Shown here one piece after another: positions 39,291 to 59,868 of a stretch of 64,000 nucleotides of DNA; position 1 is the first letter of the stretch, and every line of letters starts with the position of its first letter. The notes beneath the pieces were generated by a model that did not search any database, was not told where the DNA came from, and saw only the letters and a list, made by a program, of their open reading frames with translations. Origin of the DNA: Stutzerimonas nosocomialis (lineage in GTDB: Bacteria; Pseudomonadota; Gammaproteobacteria; Pseudomonadales; Pseudomonadaceae). The stretch is from contig NZ_QLAE01000010.1 of NCBI RefSeq assembly GCF_005876855.1, forward strand, positions 62,001-126,000. The letters are read 5' to 3'. The translations under genes were made by a program, and so were the position numbers.

Positions 39291-40156
39291 TGGGATTTCA
39301 CGCTTTCAAGTGATGTGAGGAACAGGCCACCGTCTTCCTCGAAGACGGTGCCGCGAAAGAGCTTCTGGCCATTGATGCGGACGTCGTAGCGGTCCAGCGG
39401 GCGCAGCATGAGGATGTCGTTGAGCTCCAGGCCCAGTACCTGCGCCAGCGGCACCTGCGCCGCCGCGATCACGCAGTCGAGGCGTACCGGCAGGTGCTTG
39501 ATGTTGTCTGCGGGGCTGGCGTTGAGGCGTGGCGGCGGGCCGGCGAGCAGCAGGGTCAGCTCGTCGGCCAGATGCGTGTCCAGATAGATCAGGATCGACG
39601 ACTTCGCCCCGGTCAGGTGGCTCAGGTATTCGAACTCGGCGACATATTCCCAGACGGTTTCTTCGTAATCGTTCTCGAACCGTTCGAGTGCGCCGAAGGT
39701 GCTGCCCGACAATAACGAGCGCGCGAATATATCGATGACGTCGCGGCCCAGGCGATTGCGCATCCGTTGTTCGGATGAACTGATCGGCGGGGTTTCCTGG
39801 TTGGCGACGAGGGTGCCGCCGTAATAACACTCCAGTGCTTCGGTCAGCAGCGCGCGATCGATGGCAAAACCCACTTTGCCCAGCGGTGACCGATAGATGC
39901 AGTCCGGTGCGCGAGCGGCATGTTCCTGCACATCGATTCGGCACAACTCGATATTGACCCGGTAATTGCGCAGGAAATAGTCGCCGACCAGTCGCGGATG
40001 CTTGTGGGTGATTTCCCGGATGTATTGAGGAATCCGGTGGTAGTGCCGGCCAAGCTTCTGAGGTTTCAACACAGTCAGACTTTGGGCGGGCACGCCATGG
40101 TGGACTTTTGAATTGCCAGTCATGTTGTGAGCGAAGTGTCCTGTCGTTGACAGCAT
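39287..40156 (-). CDS. fliM: Lateral flagellar motor switch protein FliM, without CheY-binding peptide
   Basis: C-ring protein, 289 residues, shorter than the usual 320-330. The N-terminus (MLSTTGHFAHNMTGNSKVHH) has no LSQDEIDALL-like peptide, the segment of FliM that binds phospho-CheY, so chemotactic direction switching through this protein is unlikely. FliM2 of the second flagellum of Shewanella putrefaciens lacks it too. The central domain contains YYGGTLVANQETPPIS where most FliMs have a GGxG motif. A C-terminal SpoA domain ends LRPLDRYDVRINGQKLFRGTVFEEDGGLFL. It is the first gene of the minus-strand operon and is divergent from lafK. Confidence 0.93.
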   Translation of the reverse strand: MLSTTGHFAHNMTGNSKVHHGVPAQSLTVLKPQKLGRHYHRIPQYIREITHKHPRLVGDYFLRNYRVNIELCRIDVQEHAARAPDCIYRSPLGKVGFAIDRALLTEALECYYGGTLVANQETPPISSSEQRMRNRLGRDVIDIFARSLLSGSTFGALERFENDYEETVWEYVAEFEYLSHLTGAKSSILIYLDTHLADELTLLLAGPPPRLNASPADNIKHLPVRLDCVIAAAQVPLAQVLGLELNDILMLRPLDRYDVRINGQKLFRGTVFEEDGGLFLTSLESVKSQ

Positions 40157-40551: not shown

Positions 40552-41973
<1,422 letters not shown>

Positions 41974-47554: not shown

Positions 47555-47580
47555 TTAAGTTATCCGTCCTCGCGGTCGCC
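47555..47580 (+). promoter_or_regulatory. Lateral sigma-28 promoter, flgM copy
   Basis: TTAAG (47555-47559), 15 bp, GTCGCC (47575-47580), followed by TGTT. One of three sites with this exact spacing in the cluster, 37 bp before the flgM ATG. Confidence 0.7.
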
Positions 47581-48378: not shown

Positions 48379-48404
48379 TTAAGTAATCGTCCGCCCGGGT
48401 CGCC
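48379..48404 (+). promoter_or_regulatory. Lateral sigma-28 promoter, fliD copy
   Basis: TTAAG (48379-48383), 15 bp, GTCGCC (48399-48404), followed by TGTT. Same spacing and flanks as the flgM site. It lies about 180 bp before the fliD ATG. Confidence 0.68.
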
Positions 48405-48437: not shown

Positions 48438-48456
48438 GCGGAAACGGCTTTTCCCC
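48438..48456. promoter_or_regulatory. Proposed LafK enhancer site, fliD copy
   Basis: GCGGAAACGGCTTTTCCCC, containing the perfect dyad GGAAA-N5-TTTCC. The same 19 bp occur once more, upstream of flgB. Its centre is about 94 bp from the -24 GG of the fliD sigma-54 promoter, a typical enhancer distance. Function inferred from position and identity. Confidence 0.65.
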
Positions 48457-48538
48457 GTTGCGTCGTCGTCTTGCGAGGCGGAAGTAGATTTTCTGCGCGA
48501 GGCCTGCGCAAAGCCGCGTGATTCGTGGCTTTGGATCG

Positions 48539-48555
48539 TTGGCACTCATCTTGCT
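48539..48555 (+). promoter_or_regulatory. Sigma-54 promoter of fliD
   Basis: TTGGCACTCATCTTGCT matches the sigma-54 consensus TTGGCAC-N5-TTGCT at every defined position. GG is at 48541-48542 and GC at 48553-48554. Transcription should start near 48566, just before the fliD Shine-Dalgarno. Confidence 0.9.
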
Positions 48556-48581
48556 TTTTCGCTTGGGAAGAGGGGGCCGTC

Positions 48582-49904
48582 ATGGCAATAGATTCCGATT
48601 ACATTCAGCAGATGTCGAAGCAGCTGGCCGATTACGAGGTGCAATCCTCGCTGAACCGGCTCAACCGCAACGAAGCCAACTACAAGGCCCAGCGCACGGC
48701 CCTGTCGACGCTGCGTACCTCGCTGAGCACCTTCAATTCGGTGGTCAAGGGACTCAAGAGCACCACCTCGACCATGCTGGTCAACAGCGCGACTTTCAGC
48801 CAGGACGGCTATGCCAGCGCAACCGTCGGAACCAAGGCCGTCCCCGGCTCCTACAACTTCTTCGTCGAGCAGCTGGCCAGCGCCCATCAGGTCGCGATCG
48901 GCGGGCTGAGCGCCGCCGACATCGGCACCCAGGGCACCCTCACCATCGGCCAGGGCGGCAGCAGTTTCGACATCGACCTGTCCACGGTCGACAGCGACGG
49001 CAACGGCAGCACTTCCCTGGAAGAACTGGCCGCCGCGATCAACCAGCACGCCGGCAACACCGGCACCAAGGCGACCCTGGTGCGCAGCAACGGCGAGGTT
49101 TCGCTGGTGCTCTCGAGCGAGAAGAGCGGGGCGGACAACGCCATCAGCCTGCAGACCAGCGGCACCACCGCCGCGCTGAGCGCCGCGATCGACGCGCGCC
49201 AGGAGCTGACCCGTGCCCAGGACGCGCGAGTGCGTCTGGGCGGCGAAAGCGGCATGCTGCTGACCAACGCCAGCAACACCTTCGACAGCGTCATCGACGG
49301 CGTCAGCCTGACCTTCACCAAGACCCACGCCGCCGGCGAGCAGCCGCTGAGCCTGGAAATCGGCCAGGACAAGAGCGCGACCAAGGAGAAGGCGCAGAGC
49401 TTCGTCAATGCCTTCAACACCTTGATGACCAGCCTGGACAGCCTCACCGCCAGCGGCAACGACACCACCGCCCGCGGCCCGCTGGCCGGCGATTCGAGCA
49501 TTCGCGCCATCGAAAACCGCCTGAACCAGCTGCTGCGTACCGACTTCGGTGGCGTCAACCTGATCAGCTTCGGCATCAGCGCCGACCGCAACGGCAAGCT
49601 GACCATCGATGCCGCCCGCTTCGACGCGGCGGTGGCCAATGATCCGGAGGGCTTCGAAAAGCTCTTCACCGGCAAGGGCAACCTGCTCGATTCCATCGAC
49701 AAGAACCTGTCGGTCTACACCAGCAGCGCCAACGGGGTGCTGAAGAATCGCATGGACACCCTGGACATGAACCTGCGGCGGATCGACGAACAGTTCGACA
49801 AGCTGCAGGAGCAGTACAACAGCTTCTATGCCCGCTACCTCAAGCAGTACACCTCCATGATGCAGACGATGCAGGCCATGGAGCAGACCTTTGGAATGTT
49901 CTGA
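48582..49904 (+). CDS. fliD: Lateral flagellar cap protein FliD
   Basis: Filament cap that helps flagellin polymerise, 440 residues starting at ATG 48582 (MAIDSDYIQQMSKQLADYEVQSSLNRLNRNE), with a strong purine-rich Shine-Dalgarno (GAAGAGGGGG). The N-terminus and the C-terminal coil (RMDTLDMNLRRIDEQFDKLQEQYNSFYARYLKQYTSMMQTMQAMEQTFGMF) are the conserved parts of FliD, and the middle is the variable cap domain. The upstream region has both a sigma-28-like and a sigma-54 promoter. fliS begins at its stop. Confidence 0.95.
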   Translation: MAIDSDYIQQMSKQLADYEVQSSLNRLNRNEANYKAQRTALSTLRTSLSTFNSVVKGLKSTTSTMLVNSATFSQDGYASATVGTKAVPGSYNFFVEQLASAHQVAIGGLSAADIGTQGTLTIGQGGSSFDIDLSTVDSDGNGSTSLEELAAAINQHAGNTGTKATLVRSNGEVSLVLSSEKSGADNAISLQTSGTTAALSAAIDARQELTRAQDARVRLGGESGMLLTNASNTFDSVIDGVSLTFTKTHAAGEQPLSLEIGQDKSATKEKAQSFVNAFNTLMTSLDSLTASGNDTTARGPLAGDSSIRAIENRLNQLLRTDFGGVNLISFGISADRNGKLTIDAARFDAAVANDPEGFEKLFTGKGNLLDSIDKNLSVYTSSANGVLKNRMDTLDMNLRRIDEQFDKLQEQYNSFYARYLKQYTSMMQTMQAMEQTFGMF

Positions 49905-50302
49905 TGAATCCCTATTCGTTCAATGACAGCTACGACAGCTACCGCTCCGTGGACCTCGAGGCCCGCGCGGCCGCGGCGTCGCCCTACGAGCTGGTGCTGG
50001 TCCTGTTCGACGGCCTGCTCGACGAGCTGGCGCGTGCCCGCGGGCACATCGAGCACAAGCGCTTCCAGCAGAAGGGCGCTTCGCTGGAAAAGTGCATGAA
50101 CATCCTCAATGGCCTCAACGGCGCGCTCGACTACGAGGGCGGCGGCGAGGTGGTGCAGGAGCTGGCGCGTCTGTACGACTACTGCATCTACCGGCTCTCC
50201 GATGTCAGCGTCACCCTTTCGCTGGAGGGGCTGGACGAAGTCGTGCGCCTGCTCGGCATCCTGCGCGAAGGCTGGGAGGGCGTCAGTGCCGCACGCAAAT
50301 GA
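49904..50302 (+). CDS. fliS: Lateral flagellar flagellin chaperone FliS
   Basis: A 132-residue cytoplasmic chaperone that binds the C-terminus of flagellin before export. It has YDSYRSVDLEARAAAASPYELVLVLFDGLLDELARARGHIEHKRFQQKGASLEKCMNILNGL, the conserved FliS core. Its ATG overlaps the fliD stop by 1 bp, and the fliT-like gene overlaps its end by 17 bp. Confidence 0.95.
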   Translation: MNPYSFNDSYDSYRSVDLEARAAAASPYELVLVLFDGLLDELARARGHIEHKRFQQKGASLEKCMNILNGLNGALDYEGGGEVVQELARLYDYCIYRLSDVSVTLSLEGLDEVVRLLGILREGWEGVSAARK

Positions 50303-50609
50303 CATCCGCCGCCTGAAGGAGCTGGGTCAACAGCTCGAGCAGGCGATGCAGCTCGATGACTGGAGCCTGATCAGCGAAGCCGACCAGGCGATCGCGCAGT
50401 GCCTGAAGGCTCTGGGCGAGCGCCTGCATCCGAGCGACGAGCTGATGCGCGCCCGCGCCGAGCTCCAGCAGTCGCATGCCCGGGCGCTCAAGCGTTGCGC
50501 CGAGGAGTGCGAGCGCCTGCGCCAGCTGCTGGAGAACTGCGTCGAGCACGCCGAAGGGCGCGCGGCCTACCAGCGCATCGGTCTCTACGCGGTAGGGGAC
50601 CAGCCATGA
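50286..50609 (+). CDS. fliT: FliT-like export chaperone
   Basis: A 107-residue helical protein between fliS and fliK. The start is GTG 50286, inside the end of fliS, because no in-frame ATG is available. The sequence (LKELGQQLEQAMQLDDWSLISEADQAIAQCLKALGE, then LMRARAELQQSHARALKRCAEECERLRQLLENC) forms helices typical of FliT/FlgN-type chaperones. The assignment rests mainly on position, which matches Vibrio lafD. Its stop overlaps the fliK ATG (ATGA). Confidence 0.72.
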   Translation: MPHANDIRRLKELGQQLEQAMQLDDWSLISEADQAIAQCLKALGERLHPSDELMRARAELQQSHARALKRCAEECERLRQLLENCVEHAEGRAAYQRIGLYAVGDQP

Positions 50610-51718
50610 TGCGCCCGGTCAGCCTGCCGCAGCAGGCCGGCGCCGCGGTCGAAGGGCAGCCCCAGGTGGCGCGCCCGGCGGGTTTCGCCCAGCGTTCGGC
50701 AGAGCTGTCGGAGCGCGCGGTTGGCCGCCTCCAGGGGCGTTTCGCCGAGCAGATGACGAGCGCGGCGGCCGCCGGCCAGGTGCTCGCCGCGCAGGAGGAG
50801 CGCCTCGCGCAGCCGCAGCCGGACCTGCCGCAAGGGCGACCCGGACAGCCGGAGTCCGCCGAGCAGCCGGAACTCACCGCCGAGCAGTGGCTGCAGGGCA
50901 TGCTCGAGCAGAGCCTGGCCGTGGTTGAGGCGCGCGAGGGCGGCCGGATCGCTGGCGACGGCGCCGAAGCGCTGTCCGAGCAGCAGGTGCTGTCGCAGGA
51001 CGTCGCTGCGCAGCCGCAGCCGGAAGCCGCCGTGACCGACGAGGTCCTGCTGGCGATGCCGGCCGTCCTGCTCGATCGCTGGAGCGGGCCGGCCGCGGCC
51101 GCGAAACTGGTCCAGCGTCCGCTCGACCTGACGGCCACGCCCATGGCCGGTGTCGGACGGTCCGAACAGGCGCTCGGCGCTCAGCTGGACGCTCTGCTGG
51201 CGACCGGCGATACCGGGCTCGCCGACACGGCCCTGCCAGGCGGGGAGCGCCAGCTGCTGGCCCAGCCGCAGGGCAATGAGCGGCTGCTCCGGTTGGAGGC
51301 GCCGCACGCCAAGTGGGGCGAGCAGATGCTCCAGGCGCTGCGCGACAACGTCGAGATGCAGCTGCAGCAGCGTGTACAGAACGCGACCATCCGCCTCGAT
51401 CCGCCGGAACTCGGCAGCATGGAGATCTTCCTCAGCCATGAGTCCGGCCGCCTGACGGTGCAGATCTCCGCCACCAACGGCGACGTGGCGCGGCTGCTGC
51501 AGCAGACCAGCGACCGTCTGCGCCACGAGCTGGTGGGGCAGAACTTCACCCAGGTCAACGTCCAGGTCGGCGCCGACGGCCAGTCCGGGCGTGGCCAGGG
51601 ACAGGGCCGCCAGCCGCACCTGCCGGCCGACGAGCCTCAGATCATGGGCAACTTCGCCACGGCGCCTGCGGCCGACAATGCGCGCGGTAGCGACAGCGAT
51701 GTCCTGGTCACCGTATGA
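50606..51718 (+). CDS. fliK: Lateral flagellar hook-length control protein FliK
   Basis: Molecular ruler for the hook, 370 residues. A long Gln/Ala-rich N-terminal part (LPQQAGAAVEGQPQVARPAG onward) is secreted and of low complexity. The C-terminal domain that contacts FlhB is conserved: ALRDNVEMQLQQRVQNATIRLDPPELGSMEIFLSHESGRLTVQISATNGDVARLLQQTSDRLRHEL. It corresponds to Vibrio lafE. It starts at ATG 50606 overlapping fliT. Confidence 0.88.
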   Translation: MMRPVSLPQQAGAAVEGQPQVARPAGFAQRSAELSERAVGRLQGRFAEQMTSAAAAGQVLAAQEERLAQPQPDLPQGRPGQPESAEQPELTAEQWLQGMLEQSLAVVEAREGGRIAGDGAEALSEQQVLSQDVAAQPQPEAAVTDEVLLAMPAVLLDRWSGPAAAAKLVQRPLDLTATPMAGVGRSEQALGAQLDALLATGDTGLADTALPGGERQLLAQPQGNERLLRLEAPHAKWGEQMLQALRDNVEMQLQQRVQNATIRLDPPELGSMEIFLSHESGRLTVQISATNGDVARLLQQTSDRLRHELVGQNFTQVNVQVGADGQSGRGQGQGRQPHLPADEPQIMGNFATAPAADNARGSDSDVLVTV

Positions 51719-51755
51719 CCGGGCTCAACAGTGATTTCTCGAATATGGGTGTGAT

Positions 51756-52226
51756 ATGACGGCGCCTCGCCTTTTGATTCTGATGGTCGTGCTCAACGTG
51801 CTGATCGTGGCGGGTGGCGTGGGCGTGGCCTACTGGCTGCTCAAGCCGGGCCTGAACGCGGCGGGCGAGCCCCTGTCTGGCCAAGCCGAGATCGCCCCGG
51901 AGGCGACCATCGTCGACTACGCCTTCCATCCGGTGGAGAAGATCATCGTCAGCCTGCGCGGGGACGGGCGCGAGCGCTATTTCGTCCTCGACCTGATGCT
52001 GCAGGCCGAGTCCGGCGACGAGCCGAAGAACTTCGCGCAGGCCGAGCCCCTGGTGCGCAACTCGGTGGTGTCCTACCTCTCGACGCTGTCCTTCGAGGAA
52101 CTGCGCGGCCTGCAGATCACCGAGTTGCAGACGCGCCTGGAGCAGGCGCTGTTCGCCGACTTCGCCAGCAAGAAGGCCGCGGTGCCCTTCAAGCAGGTGC
52201 TGGTCAGCAAGCTGATCGTGCAGTAA
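51756..52226 (+). CDS. fliL: Lateral flagellar FliL (LafF)
   Basis: A 156-residue inner-membrane protein around the stator. One N-terminal membrane helix (LLILMVVLNVLIVAGGVGVAYWLL) is followed by the periplasmic FliL domain (VEKIIVSLRGDGRERYFVLDLMLQAES and NSVVSYLSTLSFEELRG). It lies between fliK and the sigma factor gene, as lafF does in Vibrio. Confidence 0.9.
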   Translation: MTAPRLLILMVVLNVLIVAGGVGVAYWLLKPGLNAAGEPLSGQAEIAPEATIVDYAFHPVEKIIVSLRGDGRERYFVLDLMLQAESGDEPKNFAQAEPLVRNSVVSYLSTLSFEELRGLQITELQTRLEQALFADFASKKAAVPFKQVLVSKLIVQ

Positions 52227-52231
52227 CCACC

Positions 52232-52966
52232 ATGATCGCGAACCATGCTCTCGACTATGGCTACGAGGCCGAGCCCGCCGGACATTCGCTGTTCGCGCCC
52301 GGGGCCGAGCAGCGTTGGCTGATGCAGTACCTGCCGCTGGTCAAGCGCATCGTCCGGCAACTGTCGCTGCAGGCCAACCAGGTCCTTGATCGGGAAGACA
52401 TGGAGCAGATCGGCCTGATGGGGCTGCTCGAAGGATTGCGTCGCTATGGCGTTCCGGACGAGCAGTTCGGGTCGTTCGCGGCGCTGCGCATCCGTGGCGC
52501 GATCCTGGATGAGCTGCGCCGCCAGGACTGGCGGCCGCGCCAGGTCCGCCAGCAGGTGCACAAGGTCCGTGATGCCATTCGAGGCCTGGTGCGGCAACTC
52601 GGTCGCCAGCCGACCGACGAGGAAATCCGCAGCCATGCCGGCCTTACCGAGGCGCAGTACCAGGAGTTTCTCTGGGCTGATTCCTCCGAGGCCATCGAGA
52701 GCCTGGACGAGTTGCTGCAGAGCGGCCAGGAGGGCTTTGCCGAGGGCGGGGACGGCCTCGAGGAGCGCTTCGTCAAGGAGCGTCTGCTGACCCAGGCGCT
52801 GAGCCGCCTGGACGAGCGCGAGCGGCTGGTGCTGACGCTTTATTACCAACATGAGCTGAGCCTGAAGGAAATCGCGCTGGTGCTCGAAGTGAGCGATGCG
52901 CGGGTCTGCCAGCTCAGCAAGCAGGCCATCGCCAAGGCCTGCCGTTTTCTCACGGACCGCCAGTAG
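52232..52966 (+). CDS. lafS: LafS, lateral flagellar sigma-28 factor (FliA-type)
   Basis: A 244-residue sigma factor of the FliA group. Region 2: LMQYLPLVKRIVRQLSL and DREDMEQIGLMGLLEGLRRYG, with AALRIRGAILDELRRQDWRPRQVRQ. Region 3: RQLGRQPTDEEIRSHAGL. Region 4: LSRLDERERLVLTLYYQHELSLKEIALVLEVSDARVCQLSKQAI. It probably recognises the TTAAG-N15-GTCGCC promoters found in this cluster, which differ in the -10 from the usual GCCGATAA. It lies between fliL and the stator genes, the position of lafS in Vibrio. Confidence 0.93.
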   Translation: MIANHALDYGYEAEPAGHSLFAPGAEQRWLMQYLPLVKRIVRQLSLQANQVLDREDMEQIGLMGLLEGLRRYGVPDEQFGSFAALRIRGAILDELRRQDWRPRQVRQQVHKVRDAIRGLVRQLGRQPTDEEIRSHAGLTEAQYQEFLWADSSEAIESLDELLQSGQEGFAEGGDGLEERFVKERLLTQALSRLDERERLVLTLYYQHELSLKEIALVLEVSDARVCQLSKQAIAKACRFLTDRQ

Positions 52967-53036
52967 CGGCCGATACCCAGGCGCGGCGTCCGCCGCGGCG
53001 TTCAACAGTCTGCCACCAACGGAAGTAGTCATCGTC

Positions 53037-53909
53037 ATGCAGAAATTCATAGGAGCCCTGATCATCGTCGCCTGCGTCCTGGGCGGCTACGCCATGGCCA
53101 ACGGCGATATGCGCGTGCTCTGGCAGCCCGCGGAGGTGGTGATCATCCTGGGGGCCGCGTTCGGCAGCCTGGTGGTCGGCAATCCCAAGGAAGTGCTGAT
53201 CGAGATGCTGCATCAGATCAAGGGCGTGTTCGCTTACCAGCGCCGCGGCGAGGAGTTCCAGCGCCAGTTGCTGATGCTGCTGTACGAGCTGCTGGAAATG
53301 GTCGACGTGGGCGGCCTCAAGGTGCTCGATTCGCACATCGAGGAGCCGGAAAGCAGCGAGCTGTTCGCCCGCTATCCGCTGATCCTCAAGGAAAAGAACC
53401 TGATGGCGTTCATCGCCGACAACTTCCGGCTGATGGCGATGGGCAAGATCAGCGCCCATGAGCTCGAAGGCTTCCTCGAGCAGGAGCTCGAGGCCATGGA
53501 GCACGCCCTGCTGCAGCCGGCGCGCTCGCTGCACAAGATCGGCGAGGCGATGCCGGGCTTCGGCATCCTGGCGGCGATCATGGGCATCATCATCACCATG
53601 GGCAGCATCGGCGGCTCGGTCGCCGAGATCGGCGCGCACGTCGCGGCGGCGCTGGTGGGTACCTTCCTCGGCATCTTCTTCTGCTACTGCCTGATGGACC
53701 CGCTCTCCAATGCCATGAGCCAGCGCATCAAGACCGAACTCTCGGCGCTCGAATGCGTGCGTACCACCCTGGTGGCGCACGTGGCCGGCAAGCCCACGCT
53801 GCTGGCGGTCGACGCCGGGCGCAAGCTGATCGAGCAGGACGTCAAACCCGCCTTCAAGCAGCTCGAGGTCTGGGTCAACCAGTACGAGGAAGAAAGGGAC
53901 GCCGCATGA
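53037..53909 (+). CDS. lafT: Lateral flagellar stator protein MotA/LafT
   Basis: Stator subunit, 290 residues, starting at ATG 53037 (MQKFIGALIIVACVLGGYAMANGDMRVLWQPAEVVIILGAAFGSLVV). Four membrane helices are visible in two pairs. The cytoplasmic loop between helices 2 and 3 contains the charged region (KGVFAYQRRGEEFQRQLL and onward) that meets FliG. The third helix region reads PGFGILAAIMGIIITMGSIGG. It forms the ion channel with LafU; the MotA-type start and lateral context suggest protons, not tested. lafU overlaps its end by 4 bp. Confidence 0.95.
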   Translation: MQKFIGALIIVACVLGGYAMANGDMRVLWQPAEVVIILGAAFGSLVVGNPKEVLIEMLHQIKGVFAYQRRGEEFQRQLLMLLYELLEMVDVGGLKVLDSHIEEPESSELFARYPLILKEKNLMAFIADNFRLMAMGKISAHELEGFLEQELEAMEHALLQPARSLHKIGEAMPGFGILAAIMGIIITMGSIGGSVAEIGAHVAAALVGTFLGIFFCYCLMDPLSNAMSQRIKTELSALECVRTTLVAHVAGKPTLLAVDAGRKLIEQDVKPAFKQLEVWVNQYEEERDAA

Positions 53910-54808
53910 AGGGCCGGGCCGGCAAGGATCACGAAGTCACCATCGTCAAGCGCCGTGGCAAGAAGGGCCACGGCGACGAGCACGGCGGTGCCTGGAAGGT
54001 GGCCTTCGCGGATTTCACGCTGGCGATGATGGCGCTGTTCATGGTGCTCTGGATCATCCAGCCGCAGATCGACCAGTCCAACCCCTCGTTCGGGCAGATG
54101 GACACCAACCCGATCGTCGACGGCGGCGCGGGTATCTTCGATGGCAACAGCAACACCCCGCTGGATCTGGACGGGGTGCCGTTGCCGGCGCCCCAGGCGC
54201 GGGCGGATGACGGTCAGGCCGAAAGCGATCAGTCAGGGAGCAGGCGCTACAGCTCGGCCGCCGAGATGCAGTCGCTGGCCGATCTGATGCGCGAGGTGGC
54301 CGAAGAGGTAGATGCGCTGGCCAACATTGAGGTCAACGTGGTGCCCCAGGGCCTGCGCATCCTGATCAAGGACGACCAGCAGCGTTTCATGTTCCAGCGC
54401 GGCAGCGCGACGCTCAACCCGCATTTCAGCCAGCTCCTCGCGGTGCTCTCCGGGGTGCTGGCCAAGGTCGAGAACAAGCTGATCATCAGCGGCCATACCG
54501 ATGCCACGCCGTACCGCCTGGCGTCGGGTTACGACAACTGGAACCTCTCCGGCGACCGGGCGCTGCGTGCGCGCAACGTGCTGGTGGCGGCTGGTCTGCC
54601 GGAGCGTTCGGTGCTGCAGGTCTCGGCCCAGGCCGACGTCATGCCGCTGCGCCCGGAGGACCCCGAGAACGGCGCCAACCGCCGGGTCGAGATCCTGTTG
54701 CTCACCGATGCGGCCGAGACGCTGTATCGCGAGCTGTTCGGCGAAGCGTACGAGCAGGTGCGCTTCACCGAGAGCGGTGCCCGCTACCGCGGCGCGAGCC
54801 AGCCATAA
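53906..54808 (+). CDS. lafU: Lateral flagellar stator protein MotB/LafU
   Basis: Stator subunit, 300 residues. A single N-terminal membrane helix (WKVAFADFTLAMMALFMVLWIIQP) carries the ion-binding Asp in FADF (about residue 36). After a linker and plug segment, a C-terminal OmpA-type domain binds peptidoglycan (LIISGHTDATPYRLASGYDNWNLSGDRALRARNVLVAAGL). The start at ATG 53906 overlaps lafT. It is the last gene of the plus-strand fliD-to-lafU run; the following genes converge on it. Confidence 0.95.
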   Translation: MKGRAGKDHEVTIVKRRGKKGHGDEHGGAWKVAFADFTLAMMALFMVLWIIQPQIDQSNPSFGQMDTNPIVDGGAGIFDGNSNTPLDLDGVPLPAPQARADDGQAESDQSGSRRYSSAAEMQSLADLMREVAEEVDALANIEVNVVPQGLRILIKDDQQRFMFQRGSATLNPHFSQLLAVLSGVLAKVENKLIISGHTDATPYRLASGYDNWNLSGDRALRARNVLVAAGLPERSVLQVSAQADVMPLRPEDPENGANRRVEILLLTDAAETLYRELFGEAYEQVRFTESGARYRGASQP

Positions 54809-54944
54809 CCGTCACGGGGCCTGGGAAGGCCTCGGCGCAGAAGAGGAAAGCCGGGTGGTCTGGGTGCGTCCGATACGCCTGGGTCCAGGCGCGCCGCGGC
54901 GCGAAGGCGCGTCGAACGGGGCGGCTTGGGCCGTACCGCGACGG

Positions 54945-55424
54945 TCAGAGCAGGTCGGCGCGGTTGTCGGCGCAATAGACCTGCTGGGTTTCAACGCCGT
55001 AGAAGCAGGCCCCGACACGCTCGAAGGTGATCTGGGCGCCTTTGTGGCGTCCGTAGAGCAGGTTGAACAGCAATTCGTCATCCAGCGCCGTCTCGTCGGA
55101 CAGGCCCGAGATCTCCCCGGATTCGACATGCAGCCTGATGCGCCCGCGCAGATCGGTCTCGACCCTTCCGGAGGCTTCCAGGACGGCGGGCGCCTTGCGG
55201 GTCATCGAGTAGAAGCGGCCGTTGCTGAGCACCACGCTGTGGCTGACGTTGAGCACTTCGCCATTGCCGGTGATCACCTGTCCGGTCGAGGTGTAGCGGC
55301 CGTCCAGGCTCGACGGGGCGACATAACTTGCCGTCGCCACGAACGCCCAGAACAGCAGCGCCGCGGGCACCATCACCAATAGCAGAAGTTTGCCTACCGC
55401 GCCGGTTTCGCTGTGGAGGTTCAT
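54945..55424 (-). CDS. ToxS-like membrane partner of the ToxR-like regulator
   Basis: A 159-residue bitopic protein. The start is ATG 55424, overlapping the stop of the upstream regulator gene by 4 bp (ATGA), so the two are translationally coupled. One membrane helix near the N-terminus (KLLLLVMVPAALLFWAFVATASYVA) is followed by a periplasmic domain (SLDGRYTSTGQVITGNGEVLNVSHSVVLSNGRFYSMTRKA) with two cysteines near the end (GACFYGVETQQVYCADN). The size, topology and coupling to a ToxR-type gene match ToxS, the chaperone-like partner of ToxR; homology by sequence is not shown. It sits inside the lateral flagellar cluster, convergent with lafU. Confidence 0.7.
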   Translation of the reverse strand: MNLHSETGAVGKLLLLVMVPAALLFWAFVATASYVAPSSLDGRYTSTGQVITGNGEVLNVSHSVVLSNGRFYSMTRKAPAVLEASGRVETDLRGRIRLHVESGEISGLSDETALDDELLFNLLYGRHKGAQITFERVGACFYGVETQQVYCADNRADLL

Positions 55425-56254
55425 TTCAGGCACCCTTGAAGTTGCTCATCGGCGACTGAATTCAGCCGGCTCTTGTGCACTTTTAACCAATTGATGCTGC
55501 CGTCAGGTTGCAGGCAACGAATTTCGTAAAAGCCAGGCGACATGTTGACGATCAGTCGAGCCGGTTTGTCGGTGAGCTGTGCGATGTCCTGTACCAGGCT
55601 GCGGGTGTCGGCGACCAGCGCCTGCAGCAGCCGGTCGGTGCTTTCCACATAAAGTACGTGCAGCGGACCGAGGTCCAGGCTGTGGGTGACGCTCCCCGCT
55701 ACCGGGGGCGGCAGGCGGCCGTAGCCCAGCATGCCGGCCGCGACCAGCATCGCCGCGGCGACACCGGTGAGCCAGCGCCTCGTCCGCCGGCGCTGCGGTG
55801 CGACGGTTTCCGTTCGGGGCGGTTCTGCCGGCGCTGTCCGGGCTTCGGCTGCGATGGCCGCGGCTGCGGGTTCGGGTGCCGGTTCCACCTCGAGAAACTG
55901 CGGATTGAACAGATAGCCACGCCGGGGCAGGGTCTGGATGATGCGGTTGGCGTCATCGGACAGGCACTGGCGCAGCGTGTAGATCTGCTGGTTCAGGCTG
56001 CCCTGGCTGACCACCCGGCTCTGCCAGGCGTAGGCCAGCAATTCGTCTCGCGAGACCACTTCGCCGCAACTGGCCAGCAGGCGCTCCAGGACACGACTGC
56101 CGGAGAAGCCGAGATCGACGCCCTGCACGGCGCCATCGCCGAACTCCAGGCGATACAACGCAGGAAAGAACCGTACGGTCTGACCGGGAAGTCCCGTTTT
56201 AAGGGACAGGCAGCGAGCGACGCCCGAAGCCGGGGGAGCGTTGTCTGTAGTCAT
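55421..56254 (-). CDS. ToxR/CadC-like membrane-anchored transcription regulator in the lateral cluster
   Basis: A 277-residue protein starting at ATG 56254 (MTTDNAPPASGVARCLSLKTG); an in-frame TTG six codons upstream is possible. Residues 30-115 form a winged helix of the OmpR type (LEFGDGAVQGVDLGFSGSRVLERLLASCGEVVSRDELLAYAW, SQGSLNQQIYTLRQCLSDD, RIIQTLPRRGYLF). After a Pro/Ala/Arg-rich linker comes one membrane helix (RWLTGVAAAMLVAAGMLGYGRL) and a periplasmic domain with two cysteines near the end (EIRCLQPDG and LQGCLK), like the ToxR disulfide. It is coupled to the ToxS-like gene. E. coli Flag-2 has, from memory, a transmembrane regulator LafZ in a similar place. Confidence 0.82.
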   Translation of the reverse strand: MTTDNAPPASGVARCLSLKTGLPGQTVRFFPALYRLEFGDGAVQGVDLGFSGSRVLERLLASCGEVVSRDELLAYAWQSRVVSQGSLNQQIYTLRQCLSDDANRIIQTLPRRGYLFNPQFLEVEPAPEPAAAAIAAEARTAPAEPPRTETVAPQRRRTRRWLTGVAAAMLVAAGMLGYGRLPPPVAGSVTHSLDLGPLHVLYVESTDRLLQALVADTRSLVQDIAQLTDKPARLIVNMSPGFYEIRCLQPDGSINWLKVHKSRLNSVADEQLQGCLK

Positions 56255-56485
56255 GGAAGCCCGAAACTGCAAAAAGGACTGGGTATGACCGGACGGTCTG
56301 GCGATATATTGGCGTCAGTATTTTGATGATACAAGCCTTGTTTTTTACCGCTGGTCGTTTTCTGCTCGATTGATGTCGCGGATTGCGCTAGGGCCGGCGA
56401 GGTCGTTCGGGCGCGGAACGCTATCGGCAGACGGTACCGATTGCTGAGGCGGGGGCGACGAATGGTCGTCACTGTCATCGGACAT

Positions 56486-56511
56486 GAAAACGCCCCGACA
56501 AGCGGGGCGTT
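56486..56511 (-). terminator. Intrinsic terminator after the second flagellin gene
   Basis: On the minus strand an 8-bp GC stem (ACGCCCCG with CGGGGCGT, 5-nt loop) is followed by TTTT. It lies about 45 bp beyond the flagellin stop at 56553. The rest of the gap up to the ToxR-like gene start (56273-56485) has no gene and an AT-rich region at 56300-56350, probably the regulator promoter. Confidence 0.82.
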
Positions 56512-56552
56512 CGGGTACAGCGAGGCCGCTTGGGCGGCCCGTGTGACGCGGC

Positions 56553-56763
56553 TTAGCCGAGCAGGGACATGACCATGCTGGGCATCTGGCCGGCTTGCTT
56601 GAGCATGGAGATGCCGGACTGCATGAGCATGGAGTTCTTGCTCATGTTGGCGCTTTCGACGGCGAAGTCGGCGTCCATGATGCGACCCTTGGCCATGTCG
56701 GTGTTGTCCTTCATGTTGGCCAGGTTGTTGTTGGTGTGATTCAGGCGGTTGATGTTGGCACCA
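56553..56763 (-). repeat. Near-identical 3' flagellin segment (pair with 57589-57799)
   Basis: The last roughly 210 bp of both flagellin genes are nearly identical at the DNA level, including silent positions. This suggests recent duplication or gene conversion. Confidence 0.85.
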
Positions 56764-57494
56764 AACTGAGCGCGCACCTCGCCCAACGAGTTGAGCAGGG
56801 TTTCCAGCTTGGTGATGGTGCCGTTGGCATTGTTCACCGCGGTGTCGGGCGCGGGGGCGGTACCGGCAGTGATGGTGGCGATTTCGGTGCCGACGGTGGT
56901 TGGGTCATCGCCGTTGTCGGTGAAGATCGCCGACGCCGCGCCCAGGTTGGTGGCCAGGGTGCCGAGCGCGGTGGAGACGTTGACCTCCATGGTCTCGCTC
57001 GAGCTCGAACCGATCTGGAAGTTCACGCCCTCGGCTTCGCCGAACTTGCCGCTGGCGCCGTCGACGCCGTCGCCGTCGCTGAACAGGCCCTCACCGGCGT
57101 ACTTGGTGTTCTTGAAGATGTTCAGCAGTTCCTTGCCCAGCTCGTCGTACTCGGCCTGGATCGACTTGAGGTCGTCTACGCCGTTGGTGCCGTTGGCGCC
57201 CTGAGTGGCCAGGTCCTTCATGCGCTGGACGATGTCGGTCATCTCGCTGAAGGCGCCTTCGGCGGTCTGCAGCATGGATACCGAATCGCCGACGTTGCGC
57301 ATGGCGACGCCCATGCCGCGGCTCTGGGCGTTCAGGCGGGTGGCGATCTGCAGGCCGGCGGCGTCGTCGGCGGCCGAGTTGATGCGCAGGCCGGTGCCCA
57401 GACGCTGCTGGTTGGTGGCCAGGGCGCTGTTGAACTTGTTCAGGCTGGTGTTGGTGGTCAGCGCGGAATAGTTGGTATGGATGGACAATGCCAT
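56553..57494 (-). CDS. lafA2: Lateral flagellin, second copy
   Basis: A 313-residue flagellin. The N-terminal D0/D1 region (MALSIHTNYSALTTNTSLNKFNSALATNQQRLGTGLRINSAADDAAGLQIATRL) and the C-terminal D0 (MKDNTDMAKGRIMDADFAVESANMSKNSMLMQSGISMLKQAGQMPSMVMSLLG) are identical to those of the upstream copy. The middle is different and 34 residues longer (KNTKYAGEGLFSDGDGVDGASGKF and the Thr/Ala-rich stretch after it). It has no TTAAG-N15-GTCGCC promoter of its own. Only a GC hairpin separates it from copy 1, so read-through from copy 1 is likely. An intrinsic terminator follows. Confidence 0.95.
   Translation of the reverse strand: MALSIHTNYSALTTNTSLNKFNSALATNQQRLGTGLRINSAADDAAGLQIATRLNAQSRGMGVAMRNVGDSVSMLQTAEGAFSEMTDIVQRMKDLATQGANGTNGVDDLKSIQAEYDELGKELLNIFKNTKYAGEGLFSDGDGVDGASGKFGEAEGVNFQIGSSSSETMEVNVSTALGTLATNLGAASAIFTDNGDDPTTVGTEIATITAGTAPAPDTAVNNANGTITKLETLLNSLGEVRAQFGANINRLNHTNNNLANMKDNTDMAKGRIMDADFAVESANMSKNSMLMQSGISMLKQAGQMPSMVMSLLG
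57200..57494 (-). repeat. Near-identical 5' flagellin segment (pair with 58134-58428)
   Basis: The first roughly 290 bp of the two flagellin genes differ at only a few positions by eye, while the central parts are clearly different. Confidence 0.85.
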
Positions 57495-57559
57495 GTCTTG
57501 GATCCTTATGAGCGGTTGGCGATCGTCGCCCCGTAAGCGGTCGCGTTCGGGGCGTCAAT

Positions 57560-57579
57560 GGCGCCCGTCGCCGGGCGCC
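57560..57579 (-). terminator. GC hairpin between the two flagellin genes
   Basis: An 8-bp perfect stem, GGCGCCCG with CGGGCGCC and a TCGC loop, without a T-run. It may slow or partly stop transcription between the copies, or set the 3' end of an mRNA for copy 1. Confidence 0.45.
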
Positions 57580-57588
57580 TTCGTGTCA

Positions 57589-58428
57589 TCAGCCCAGGAG
57601 GGACATGACCATGCTGGGCATCTGGCCAGCTTGCTTGAGCATGGAGATGCCGGACTGCATGAGCATGGAGTTCTTGCTCATGTTGGCGCTTTCGACGGCG
57701 AAGTCGGCGTCCATGATGCGGCCCTTGGCCATGTCGGTGTTGTCCTTCATGTTGGCCAGGTTGTTGTTGGTGTGGTTCAGGCGGTTGATGTTGGCACCCA
57801 GGGTGGCACGCATCGCCCCGACCGCATTGAGCGCGGTTTCCAGCTCGTCCATGGCGGTGCCGGCGTTGGTGGCGTCGTCCAGGGCCTCGGCCTTGACGGT
57901 GGTGATGGCGTCAGTGACTTCGGTCAGCTTGTCGCTGGCGTCCAGCTCCATGGTCTCGGCGCTGCTGGAACCGATCTGGAAGTTGATCCCGGCGGTGAAC
58001 TTGCCGCCGGCGCCGAACAGGGCTTCGCCGGCATACTTGGTGTTGTCGATGATGTTGGTCAGTTCCTTGCCCAACTCGTCGTATTCGGCCTGCAGCGCGG
58101 TGCGGTCATCGGCGCTGTTGGTGTCGTTGGCGGCCTGGGTGGCCAGATCCTTCATGCGCTGCATGATGTCGGTCATTTCGCTGAAGGCGCCTTCGGCGGT
58201 CTGCAGCATGGAAACGGAGTCGCCGACGTTGCGCATGGCAACGCCCATGCCGCGGCTCTGGGCGTTCAGGCGGGTGGCGATCTGCAGACCGGCGGCGTCG
58301 TCGGCGGCCGAGTTGATGCGCAGGCCGGTACCCAGGCGCTGCTGGTTGGTGGCCAGGGCGCTGTTGAACTTGTTCAGGCTGGTGTTGGTGGTCAGCGCGG
58401 AGTAGTTGGTATGGATGGACAGGGCCAT
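57589..58428 (-). CDS. lafA1: Lateral flagellin, first copy
   Basis: A 279-residue flagellin, the promoter-proximal copy. The same conserved D0/D1 ends as copy 2 and a shorter central part (DNTKYAGEALFGAGGKFTAGINFQIGSSSAETMELDASDKLTEV). It lacks the large D2/D3 outer domains of enteric flagellins, so the filament should be thin. The TTAAG-N15-GTCGCC promoter lies 63-88 bp upstream. It is exported through the lateral apparatus with FliS as its chaperone. Confidence 0.96.
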   Translation of the reverse strand: MALSIHTNYSALTTNTSLNKFNSALATNQQRLGTGLRINSAADDAAGLQIATRLNAQSRGMGVAMRNVGDSVSMLQTAEGAFSEMTDIMQRMKDLATQAANDTNSADDRTALQAEYDELGKELTNIIDNTKYAGEALFGAGGKFTAGINFQIGSSSAETMELDASDKLTEVTDAITTVKAEALDDATNAGTAMDELETALNAVGAMRATLGANINRLNHTNNNLANMKDNTDMAKGRIMDADFAVESANMSKNSMLMQSGISMLKQAGQMPSMVMSLLG

Positions 58429-58490
58429 GTTGATTCCTTCGTGCGAGTGGGCGTTTGGGAGCTGGCTTCGACTGCCTGCTGAAGGAACAA

Positions 58491-58516
58491 GGCGACACCT
58501 TTGGGCGATGCCTTAA
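58491..58516 (-). promoter_or_regulatory. Lateral sigma-28 promoter, flagellin copy
   Basis: On the minus strand TTAAG (58516-58512), 15 bp, GTCGCC (58496-58491), followed by TTGTT. It is 63 bp before the lafA1 ATG. Same spacing as the flgM and fliD sites. Confidence 0.75.
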
Positions 58517-58602
58517 AGGTTGGCGCCAAATTTTTTTGCAGGCCCCCGCGGCCCGATGCCTTGCCCACCGCCGGGCTGACGCGCACCCGCGCACCCGCCG
58601 CC

Positions 58603-59424
58603 CTAGAAGGTGCTGCTGACCACTCCGTCTTCCACGACCTTGGCGTCGATCACGTTCTGGCTGCGCAGGTTGCGCACCCGGATCACGTCACCGGGGCGGC
58701 CGTCGGCCAGCGCCTCGCCACTGGCCGAGGCTTCGATGCCGTCCTGGCTGGCGATGATCTTCACCGGCTGGCCGCGTCGAACGGCCAGGGTCTCGGCCAG
58801 CAGGACCGGGGTCAGCAGCTGGTTGGGGCGTATCCGGCGCTTGGCGTCCATCCCGACCACGTCTTCGAGCCGGTTGTAGAAGCCGCGGTTGGCCCTGGCG
58901 ATGTTCAGCGGCTCCAGCTTCACGTCGCCTGCGCCGATGGTCTGGCCGCGCTCGATGAGCCCCTGGGCGTGGACCGCCGGCAGCAGCGCATTGGCCTGGC
59001 TGCTGAGCGACAGCGACCAGCCACCGGTTCCGGGGCATGAAACCTGTAGCCGCTGGCGATCCAGGGGCGAGGCGGCCGGCCCGGTAGGTCTCACCTGCAG
59101 CGCCCGGCTGCATGGCGACAAGCCGGCGACCCGTGGCGGCAGTTCGGTGGCATGGCTCACCCGCAGTCCTTGCCAGCCCTGGCGCTTCGCCTCGAGTTCC
59201 AGCGCCTGACGCAGGTGGTTCTCCACGGCCTGGTTGATCTGCTCGGCAGCGCTCGTGGCGGCCGATGCTTCGCAGATGCCCAGGGCGAGCAGCAGCGCTG
59301 CAGCGGAAACGGCTTTTCCCCTTGTCCGGCTCCGGCGGCCGCCAAGCGGAAGCGGGGCGCCCGAACGAGGTCGATTGGGCTGGATTTTATTATTTAAAAT
59401 CAAAGGCTTATCCATGTTCTTCAT
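58603..59424 (-). CDS. flgA: Lateral flagellar P-ring assembly protein FlgA
   Basis: Periplasmic chaperone for the P ring, 273 residues starting at ATG 59424. The start has a long basic N-terminal stretch before a hydrophobic export segment (KAVSAAALLLALGICEASA); a later start inside it cannot be excluded. The SAF domain is typical: ALLPAVHAQGLIERGQTIGAGDVKLEPLNIARANRGFYNRLEDVVGMDAKRRIRPNQLLTP and the C-terminal KIIASQDGIEASASGEALADGRPGDVIRVRNLRSQNVIDAKVV. It is divergent from flgB; its coding region holds the proposed LafK enhancer. Confidence 0.92.
   Translation of the reverse strand: MKNMDKPLILNNKIQPNRPRSGAPLPLGGRRSRTRGKAVSAAALLLALGICEASAATSAAEQINQAVENHLRQALELEAKRQGWQGLRVSHATELPPRVAGLSPCSRALQVRPTGPAASPLDRQRLQVSCPGTGGWSLSLSSQANALLPAVHAQGLIERGQTIGAGDVKLEPLNIARANRGFYNRLEDVVGMDAKRRIRPNQLLTPVLLAETLAVRRGQPVKIIASQDGIEASASGEALADGRPGDVIRVRNLRSQNVIDAKVVEDGVVSSTF
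59303..59321. promoter_or_regulatory. Proposed LafK enhancer site, flgB copy
   Basis: The same 19 bp, GCGGAAACGGCTTTTCCCC, as at 48438, here inside the 5' part of flgA. Its centre is about 116 bp from the -24 GG of the flgB sigma-54 promoter. The difference from the fliD spacing (22 bp) equals two helical turns. Function inferred. Confidence 0.65.
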
Positions 59425-59425
59425 C

Positions 59426-59442
59426 TAGGCATGGTTCCTGCA
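59426..59442 (+). promoter_or_regulatory. Sigma-54 promoter of the flgB operon
   Basis: TAGGCATGGTTCCTGCA has GG (59428-59429) and GC (59440-59441) 10 bp apart and matches 9 of 12 defined consensus positions. It lies about 75 bp before the flgB ATG. Confidence 0.72.
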
Positions 59443-59505: not shown

Positions 59506-59868
59506 ATGAGTATACGGATCGACGACACCTTGAACGTCCATGCGCGCGCGCTGGGGCTGCGCATGCAGCGCAGCGAGATCCTCGCCGCGAACCTCGCCAA
59601 CGAGGACACCCCGGGCTTCCAGGCACGCGATATCGACTTCACCCAGGAGATGCGGCGGCTGGAAGACCATGCCCCGCGGCTGGCCATCGCCGGGGGCGAT
59701 CCGCGTCCGTTGTACCGCGTGCCGACCCAGGCTTCGCAGGACGGCAACACCGTCGAACTGTCGGTCGAGCAGGCGCAGTTCTCGCGCAACTCGATGGATT
59801 TCCAGACCAGCCTGACCTTTCTGACCATGAAGTTTCGTGGGCTCAAGCAGGCCATTGAAGGACGCTGA
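59506..59868 (+). CDS. flgB: Lateral flagellar proximal rod protein FlgB
   Basis: A 120-residue rod protein. The N-terminal rod motif is RIDDTLNVHARALGLRMQRSEILAANLANEDTPGFQARDIDF (conserved NLAN-x-TPG). The C-terminus, VEQAQFSRNSMDFQTSLTFLTMKFRGLKQAI, also fits FlgB. It is the first gene of the plus-strand flgB-C-D-E-F-G-H operon with a sigma-54 promoter before it. Confidence 0.95.
   Translation: MSIRIDDTLNVHARALGLRMQRSEILAANLANEDTPGFQARDIDFTQEMRRLEDHAPRLAIAGGDPRPLYRVPTQASQDGNTVELSVEQAQFSRNSMDFQTSLTFLTMKFRGLKQAIEGR

What the first reader, a model, noticed from the sequence alone, without database searches (positions are those of the whole stretch)
48438..59321. Identical 19-bp dyad upstream of two sigma-54 promoters: proposed LafK enhancer
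GCGGAAACGGCTTTTCCCC occurs at 48438-48456 and 59303-59321 and I noticed no other copy in the window. Each copy sits upstream of a sigma-54 promoter (fliD, GG at 48541; flgB, GG at 59428). Centre-to-GG distances are about 94 and 116 bp. The 22-bp difference is two helical turns, so both sites face the same side of the DNA. The core GGAAA-N5-TTTCC is a perfect dyad, as expected for a dimeric Fis-type domain such as that of LafK, encoded in the same cluster. One copy lies inside flgA coding sequence, where identity is not required by the neighbouring gene.
Basis: partly seen in the sequence, partly recalled or inferred. Interest (0 to 1): 0.72.

Follow-up and report, generated by a model that had tools for sequence, protein, structure and literature searches.

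The report
Conserved LafK-type enhancer of lateral-flagella operons
A short mirror-image DNA sequence sits at a nearly fixed distance before two lateral-flagellum operons in the sampled relatives that carry the regulator gene lafK, and it is most likely the docking site through which that regulator switches those operons on.

Summary
The 19-bp identity is incidental: the conserved unit is GGAAR-N5-YTTCC with a variable spacer. It lies 91.5-94.5 bp (fliD) or 116.5-117.5 bp (flgB) upstream of a -24/-12 promoter. In the genus this dyad+promoter unit occurs exactly twice in each of 28 genomes with the lateral system and in none of the other 28. In a 398-genome family sample it occurs in 81 of 81 LafK+ genomes (79 with two or more) and in 13 of 317 LafK- genomes, always singly. 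The flgB copy lies in flgA and is kept through rare codons. LafK is sister to FleR. The polar flgB promoter has a similar two-element layout with a related but different dyad, typically GCGGTAA-N4-TTGCCGC. Best reading: a sigma-54 enhancer bound by LafK, diverged from the polar, presumably FleR, site. Binding is inferred. No report of a LafK operator turned up in the papers I could search.

The parts
   Evidence: perfect GGAAR-N5-YTTCC at the same place in 39 of 39 named LafK loci with a located fliD start, of 63 examined
48480..48494 (+). proximal near-dyad GGAAGTAGATTTTCT (one half-site base off), 40 bp from the distal one, centre 54.5 bp upstream of GG
   Evidence: at most 1 mismatch in 57 of 60 distinct fliD units
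48540..48554 (+). -24/-12 (sigma-54) promoter TGGCACTCATCTTGC of fliD
   Evidence: only match without mismatch in the window; conserved in the alignment
48582..49904 (+). fliD (lateral filament cap), followed by fliS and, further on, lafS
   Evidence: Pfam FliD_N/FliD_C; gene order
59305..59319 (+). distal dyad GGAAACGGCTTTTCC of the flgB promoter, inside flgA codons, centre 116.5 bp upstream of GG
   Evidence: two units in 28 of 28 lateral-system genomes of the genus
59346..59352 (+). proximal half-site GCGGAAG of the flgB promoter (no partner half)
   Evidence: GGAA at offset 43 in 39 of 40 distinct flgB units
59398..59410 (+). IHF-consensus-like AATCAAAGGCTTA between enhancer and promoter (IHF consensus recalled)
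   Evidence: perfect in 8 of 21 lateral flgB promoters, at most 1 mismatch in 18 of 21; no such site at fliD in this window
59427..59441 (+). -24/-12 (sigma-54) promoter AGGCATGGTTCCTGC of flgB
   Evidence: GGCA and CTGC columns invariant in 21 of 21
59506..59868 (+). flgB (lateral rod), followed by flgC
   Evidence: NCBIfam FlgB over cut-off
58603..59424 (-). flgA, whose 5' coding part carries the distal dyad (exact start codon not established; the candidate starts before the signal peptide lie upstream of the dyad)
   Evidence: Pfam ChapFlgA; codon analysis
40552..41973 (+). lafK: sigma-54 activator with AAA+ and Fis-type HTH, proposed binder
   Evidence: Pfam Sigma54_activat and HTH_8; FleR-sister clade

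Best explanation
GGAAR-N5-YTTCC is the binding site (upstream activating sequence) of the lateral-flagella sigma-54 activator encoded at 40552-41973 (LafK). A LafK dimer binds the distal dyad through its Fis-type helix-turn-helix. A second dimer binds the weaker proximal element (a near-dyad at fliD, a half-site at flgB). The assembled AAA+ ring contacts sigma-54 polymerase at the -24/-12 promoter by DNA looping and opens it. By this route LafK would drive two transcription units, one starting with flgB and one with fliD. Shown: the site, its place, its conservation, its strict co-occurrence with lafK in the samples, the two-element layout and the constraint on flgA codons. Inferred: that LafK is the binder, occupancy of the second element, looping, activation and operon extent.
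For: Genus: the dyad+promoter unit occurs twice in each of the 28 lateral-system genomes and 0 times in the other 28, the same 28 as the lafS+ set; the reversed pattern gave 4 hits in 56 genomes. Family: 81 of 81 LafK+ against 13 of 317 LafK- (single copies); at least two copies in 79 of 81 against 0 of 317; the reversed pattern gave 10 hits in 398 genomes. In several genomes (e.g. G570, G658, G704) lafK lies on another contig than the two units, so this is not mere gene order. Of 60 unit loci fetched, 55 lie before lateral fliD or flgB, and the 5 others come from LafK- genomes. Spacing: 56 of 56 genus units and 102 of 105 units in LafK+ genomes outside the genus fall in two narrow classes. 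Same site with LafK in Parazoarcus (Zoogloeaceae), Saccharophagus and a Lysobacteraceae bin. GGA/NYT/TCC codons kept in flgA. LafK recognition helix near-invariant over 63 named loci.
Against: No binding or expression data. A ToxR/CadC-like gene (55421-56272) is also in all 28 genus clusters, so co-occurrence alone does not single out LafK; but only a sigma-54 activator can open such promoters (established knowledge). The flgB proximal element is only a half-site. The own genome's polar flgB promoter also has a GCGGAA half-site, so FleR may read part of the lateral site. The fliM-lafK region shows no such dyad. In V. parahaemolyticus RpoN bound the flgB2 and lafA but not the lafB (cap) promoter in EMSA (PMC9817140, passages). 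Two LafK+ genomes have one unit only: in G471 the flgB unit is at 119.5 bp and no fliD was found in the stretch read; in G660 no flgB was found in the stretch read. Related genomes are not independent, so the Fisher p-value overstates.
Confidence: 0.82

Rival explanations
1. The dyads are bound in vivo by the polar-flagellum activator FleR (or jointly by FleR and LafK), since both share a very similar recognition helix.
For: LafK and FleR are sister clades with helices TPRALRYRL and SPRTLRYKL. Polar flgB has a similar two-element layout, and the left half of its proximal element is GGAA, as in the lateral site, in 11 of 30 genomes including the own one.
Against: The paired unit is absent from 317 of 317 LafK- genomes, although a FleR-like gene is present in at least one lateral-negative genus genome (G051) and a polar-type FliA in the genus genomes without the lateral one. 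At polar flgB the right half is TTGCCGC in 27 of 30, and the best LafK-type dyad has 2-3 mismatches in 30 of 30. None of 10 candidate sigma-54 sites in 60 kb of own polar regions has a LafK-type dyad with at most 1 mismatch nearby.
Confidence: 0.12
2. The dyad is the site of another cluster regulator, such as the ToxR/CadC-like protein at 55421-56272, acting beside LafK.
For: The gene is in 28 of 28 genus clusters at 45-100% identity.
Against: Winged-helix regulators of this kind usually bind direct repeats and cannot open sigma-54 promoters (recalled knowledge). The spacing to the -24/-12 promoter is nearly fixed, as for an enhancer.
Confidence: 0.04
3. Chance or coding/RNA feature: the two copies are a coincidence, a hairpin or terminator, or conserved FlgA residues.
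For: In the window alone the core is only mildly unusual (12 of 100 shuffles).
Against: Conservation across genera with variable spacers; no T-run follows the fliD dyad; in flgA the two middle residues vary while rare codons are kept.
Confidence: 0.01

Closest known systems
NtrC-type sigma-54 enhancers (glnA UAS; recalled, not compared here)
   Same: dyad sites in tandem about 100 bp upstream of a -24/-12 promoter, activator of the same broad class
   Different: different sequence (GGAAR-N5-YTTCC), 40-43 bp between elements, flagellar targets
FleR / FlrC flagellar enhancers
   Same: FleR-clade activator; flgB target; polar flgB of the same genus has two elements at 115-121 and 71-74 bp against 116.5 and 73.5 at lateral flgB here; FleR is said to recognise the flgBCDE and flgFGHIJKL promoters (PMC8335546, passages)
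   Different: right half YTTCC against TTGCC and spacer 5 against 4; the left half overlaps in 11 of 30 polar sites. FlrC sites are typically downstream of the start (PMC6504787, passages). A FleR motif from HT-SELEX exists for P. syringae (PMC7532196, passages); its letters were not in the text I saw, so I could not compare
LafK of Vibrio/Aeromonas lateral flagella
   Same: sigma-54 activator in a lateral cluster; Aeromonas PflgB, PfliM and PlafA fall in a lafK mutant (PMC5013049, passages); the Vibrio fliM operon is LafK-independent (PMC3930126, passages)
   Different: Vibrio/Aeromonas LafK is described as similar to FlaK (PMC11242183, passages), whereas this protein is FleR-like; orthology was not tested here; no binding site was given in the passages read

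Membership tests
sigma-54 enhancer (UAS) | -24/-12 promoter downstream | tested here: met
sigma-54 enhancer (UAS) | dyad upstream at a fixed distance, conserved in relatives | tested here: met
sigma-54 enhancer (UAS) | more than one site for the activator | tested here: met
   proximal near-dyad 57 of 60 (fliD); at flgB only a half-site, 39 of 40
sigma-54 enhancer (UAS) | cognate activator gene co-occurs | tested here: met
sigma-54 enhancer (UAS) | activator binds and activates from it | not testable with these tools
   needs EMSA/footprint and reporter
FleR/FlrC enhancer | same dyad as the polar flgB promoter of the genus | tested here: not met
   right half TTGCCGC in 27 of 30 with N4, best LafK-type dyad 2-3 mismatches in 30 of 30; but left half GGAA in 11 of 30. 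That the polar dyad is the FleR site is itself inferred
LafK activator | sigma-54 AAA+ domain and C-terminal Fis-type HTH | tested here: met
LafK activator | gene within a lateral flagella cluster | tested here: met
LafK activator | orthology to Vibrio/Aeromonas LafK | not tested
   no Vibrio or Aeromonas record is among the 79 loci kept; the E. coli record tried is not held

The most novel reading that the evidence does not exclude
Lateral and polar flagella in pseudomonads are run by paralogous FleR-clade activators on paralogous enhancers. These kept much the same two-element geometry at flgB (about 116 and 73 bp) but diverged in one half-site (YTTCC against TTGCC) and in spacer length (5 against 4 bp). 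This would make a largely insulated pair of regulator-site couples within one cell, with the lateral regulon reached through this site reduced to two transcription units.
Probability: 0.45. Interest if true: 0.62.

Novelty: new member of a known kind. Interest (0 to 1): 0.5.

Why it matters
It gives a defined candidate operator for a pseudomonad lateral-flagella activator (no LafK operator was seen in the listings of searches) and predicts its targets in 81 of 398 sampled genomes. It turns a question, how a cell with two flagellar systems keeps its paralogous sigma-54 activators apart, into a test of one half-site and one spacer base pair.

Tried and rejected
Rejected or not borne out: the 19-bp identity as meaningful; a third element at about 14 bp, seen only weakly in a few loci; a divergent sigma-54 promoter for flgA using the same enhancer (best candidate 4 mismatches); general IHF dependence (the consensus-like site is perfect in 11 of 27 lateral fliD, 8 of 21 lateral flgB and 16 of 30 polar flgB promoters, and absent at fliD here); class-wide spread (8 of 368 other genomes hit, all single; 11 hits of the reversed control). 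My first idea that one base (A against C/T at half-site position 5) separates lateral from polar sites did not hold for the left half: GGAA stands there in 11 of 30 polar sites, the own genome included. After that check I lowered the novel case from 0.55 to 0.45, the best explanation from 0.84 to 0.82 and the interest from 0.52 to 0.5, and raised the FleR rival from 0.10 to 0.12. A first script for the polar flgB reading frame was off by one base and found nothing; corrected. The codon comparison uses the 24 of 25 clusters with an flgA match in which the perfect dyad lay in the stretch; the 25th (L016) is cut at the end of the fetched stretch and its copy was found; 3 of 28 clusters had no flgA in the stretch. 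No structure prediction was run.
Full report
Observation. The 19-mer is present twice and only twice in the window, each time upstream of a -24/-12 promoter. The strict core has four places in the genome, two of them these. The relaxed core has 17 places against 24 for the reversed control, so the motif as such is not enriched; its place is what matters.

Conservation in the genus. LafS (window 52232-52966) is present at 79% identity or more in 28 of 56 genomes including the own one (one, G018, an incomplete genome, has a stop in it). I fetched 20 kb around it, less where a contig ended, from the 27 others. A fliD start was found in 27 of 28 clusters and an flgB start in 21 of 28. In all of these the dyad, allowing R/Y at the inner base, sits at one place. 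The alignment shows the dyad and the promoter standing out of an otherwise diverged upstream region.

Co-occurrence. One pattern, dyad + 81-111 bases + GGCAY-N6-TGC, was run on whole genomes. Genus: 28 of 56 genomes, two copies each, exactly the lafS+ set; the reversed pattern gave 4 hits in all. Family: 94 of 398 genomes. LafK at E up to 1e-150 is in 81 of 398. All 81 have the unit and 79 have two or more; of 317 without LafK, 13 have one and none has two; the reversed pattern gave 10 hits in 398 genomes. Class: own genome two, 8 of 368 others one each, reversed control 11 hits. Of 60 unit loci fetched from the genus and family searches, 55 sit before lateral fliD or flgB; the five others are single hits in LafK- genomes. 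In G570, G658 and G704, among others, lafK is on a different contig from the two units, so shared gene order does not explain the link.

Geometry. The 56 genus units fall at 91.5-94.5 bp (28) and 116.5-117.5 bp (28) from dyad centre to GG. Of 105 units in LafK+ genomes outside the genus, 51 and 51 fall in these classes; the outliers are at 104.5, 105.5 and 119.5 bp. The 104.5 case (G437) is a lateral fliD promoter whose distal dyad is 10 bp further out while its proximal dyad stays at 52.5, about one helical turn. The 119.5 case (G471) is a lateral flgB promoter. The 105.5 case is a third unit in G458 that was not examined. Among 60 distinct fliD units a proximal dyad with at most one mismatch follows in 57, and its GGAA lies 40 bp from that of the distal dyad in 54 of 60. 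Among 40 distinct flgB units a bare half-site GGAA follows at 43 bp in 39; no dyad with at most one mismatch is there. The 5-bp spacer takes 37 forms in 60 and 29 in 40, though CGG is favoured at fliD. The two copies in this window being identical is therefore incidental.

Inside flgA. The flgB distal dyad lies in flgA codons in one fixed phase. Where it was in the stretch (24 of 25 clusters with an flgA match; the 25th is cut) it reads Gly-Lys/Ser-X-X-Ser with free middle residues. It uses GGA (14 of 458 Gly codons in the rest of these flgA genes), an N-C/T-T codon (T in 150 of 1288 such codons) and TCC (38 of 280 Ser codons). The DNA, not the peptide, appears to be what is kept. The genomes are related, so these are not 24 independent events.

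Beyond the genus. Of 63 named LafK loci (L057-L119; several are the same genomes as above), 39 had a fliD start in reach, and all 39 carry the perfect relaxed dyad at 91.5-95.5 bp, including Saccharophagus, Parazoarcus (Zoogloeaceae) and a Lysobacteraceae bin. The proximal element with at most one mismatch is there in 36 of 39.

The binder. LafK (40552-41973) has the sigma-54 AAA+ domain and a Fis-type HTH. Its best own paralogue over the C-terminal part is the polar-cluster FleR-like protein (51%, residues 98-470); the FleQ-like protein matches only residues 139-381. In a tree of 26 activators LafK (13 rows, 100/100) groups with FleR (99/97), apart from FleQ. The FleR-like rows other than the own one were themselves found with the LafK query, and some branches are long. 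The recognition helix is near-invariant: [TS][PST]RALRYRL in LafK against SPRTLRYKL in own FleR and a different helix in FleQ. Vibrio/Aeromonas LafK was not compared, so the name is used by position and role only.

Polar comparison. At the polar flgB promoter of 30 genus genomes two elements stand upstream of the -24 GG. The proximal one is centred at 71-74 bp; its right half is TTGCCGC in 27 of 30; its left half is GGTA in 15 and GGAA in 11, among them the own genome; GCGGYAA-N4-TTGCCGC is complete in 14 of 30. A distal GCGGC-type element lies at 115-121 bp in 30 of 30. The best LafK-type dyad has 2-3 mismatches in 30 of 30. FleR is said to recognise the P. aeruginosa flgBCDE promoter (PMC8335546, passages) and to be needed for rod and hook genes (PMC7064773, passages). 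I infer that the polar dyad is the FleR site and the lateral dyad its diverged paralogue. The shared left half in a third of polar sites means that insulation need not be complete.

Mechanism and rivals. The simplest model is a classical enhancer: LafK dimers on two elements, ring assembly, looping to sigma-54 polymerase. An IHF-like bend site lies between enhancer and promoter at flgB (at most 1 mismatch in 18 of 21) but at fliD in only 11 of 27 and not here. FleR as the in-vivo binder and a ToxR-like cluster regulator (28 of 28 clusters) are the rivals; the first is disfavoured by absence of the paired unit from 317 of 317 LafK- genomes, the second by biochemistry known from elsewhere. The pattern predicts fliD and flgB units as direct targets while the fliM and lafK operons are not reached by this site. 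This agrees with a LafK-independent fliM operon in Vibrio (PMC3930126, passages) but not with Aeromonas, where PfliM falls in a lafK mutant (PMC5013049, passages), nor with the V. parahaemolyticus report that RpoN did not bind the lafB (cap) promoter in EMSA (PMC9817140, passages).

Literature. Searches (open PMC papers only) listed no paper whose title or abstract start announces a LafK operator. I read passages of eleven papers, none in full. A FleR motif by HT-SELEX exists for P. syringae (PMC7532196, passages), its letters unseen by me. The FlrC enhancer paper and the LafK cross-regulation paper are not held.

Verdict.

Noticed in passing
48380-48403 (+), 47556-47579 (+), 58515-58492 (-): A shared TAAG-N15-GTCGC element (sigma-28-like, presumably LafS) precedes fliD, flgM and the second flagellin gene; GTCGCC upstream of fliD is kept in 25 of 27 aligned genus sequences. 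The looser pattern TAA-N13-17-GTCGC also matched at 39963 (+) and 40493 (-). fliD may thus have both a sigma-54 and a sigma-28 promoter.
   Followed up: partly
L197-L226 (polar flgB upstream); about 9690-9720 of L136 in the own genome: Polar flgB carries a dyad, typically GCGGTAA-N4-TTGCCGC, 71-74 bp and a GCGGC-type element 115-121 bp upstream of the -24 GG; candidate FleR operator. In the own genome it reads GCGGAAAAGCGTTGCCGT.
   Followed up: partly
55421-56272 (-): ToxR/CadC-like winged-helix regulator, present in 28 of 28 genus clusters; 80% identical in the nearest relative but only 45-53% in the others.
   Followed up: partly
56553-57494 and 57589-58428 (-): Two tandem flagellin genes with near-identical N- and C-termini; the sigma-28-like element was seen only before the second one.
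   Followed up: no
   Followed up: no
G570, G658, G704 and similar genomes (unit loci L169, L167, L189): lafK lies on another contig than the fliD and flgB units, so the lateral system is split there.
   Followed up: partly
48440-48462 (in many genus relatives, not complete in the window): In many Stutzerimonas the fliD distal dyad overlaps a longer mirror repeat GGAAACGG-N7-CCGTTTCC; its right arm is not intact in this genome.
   Followed up: no
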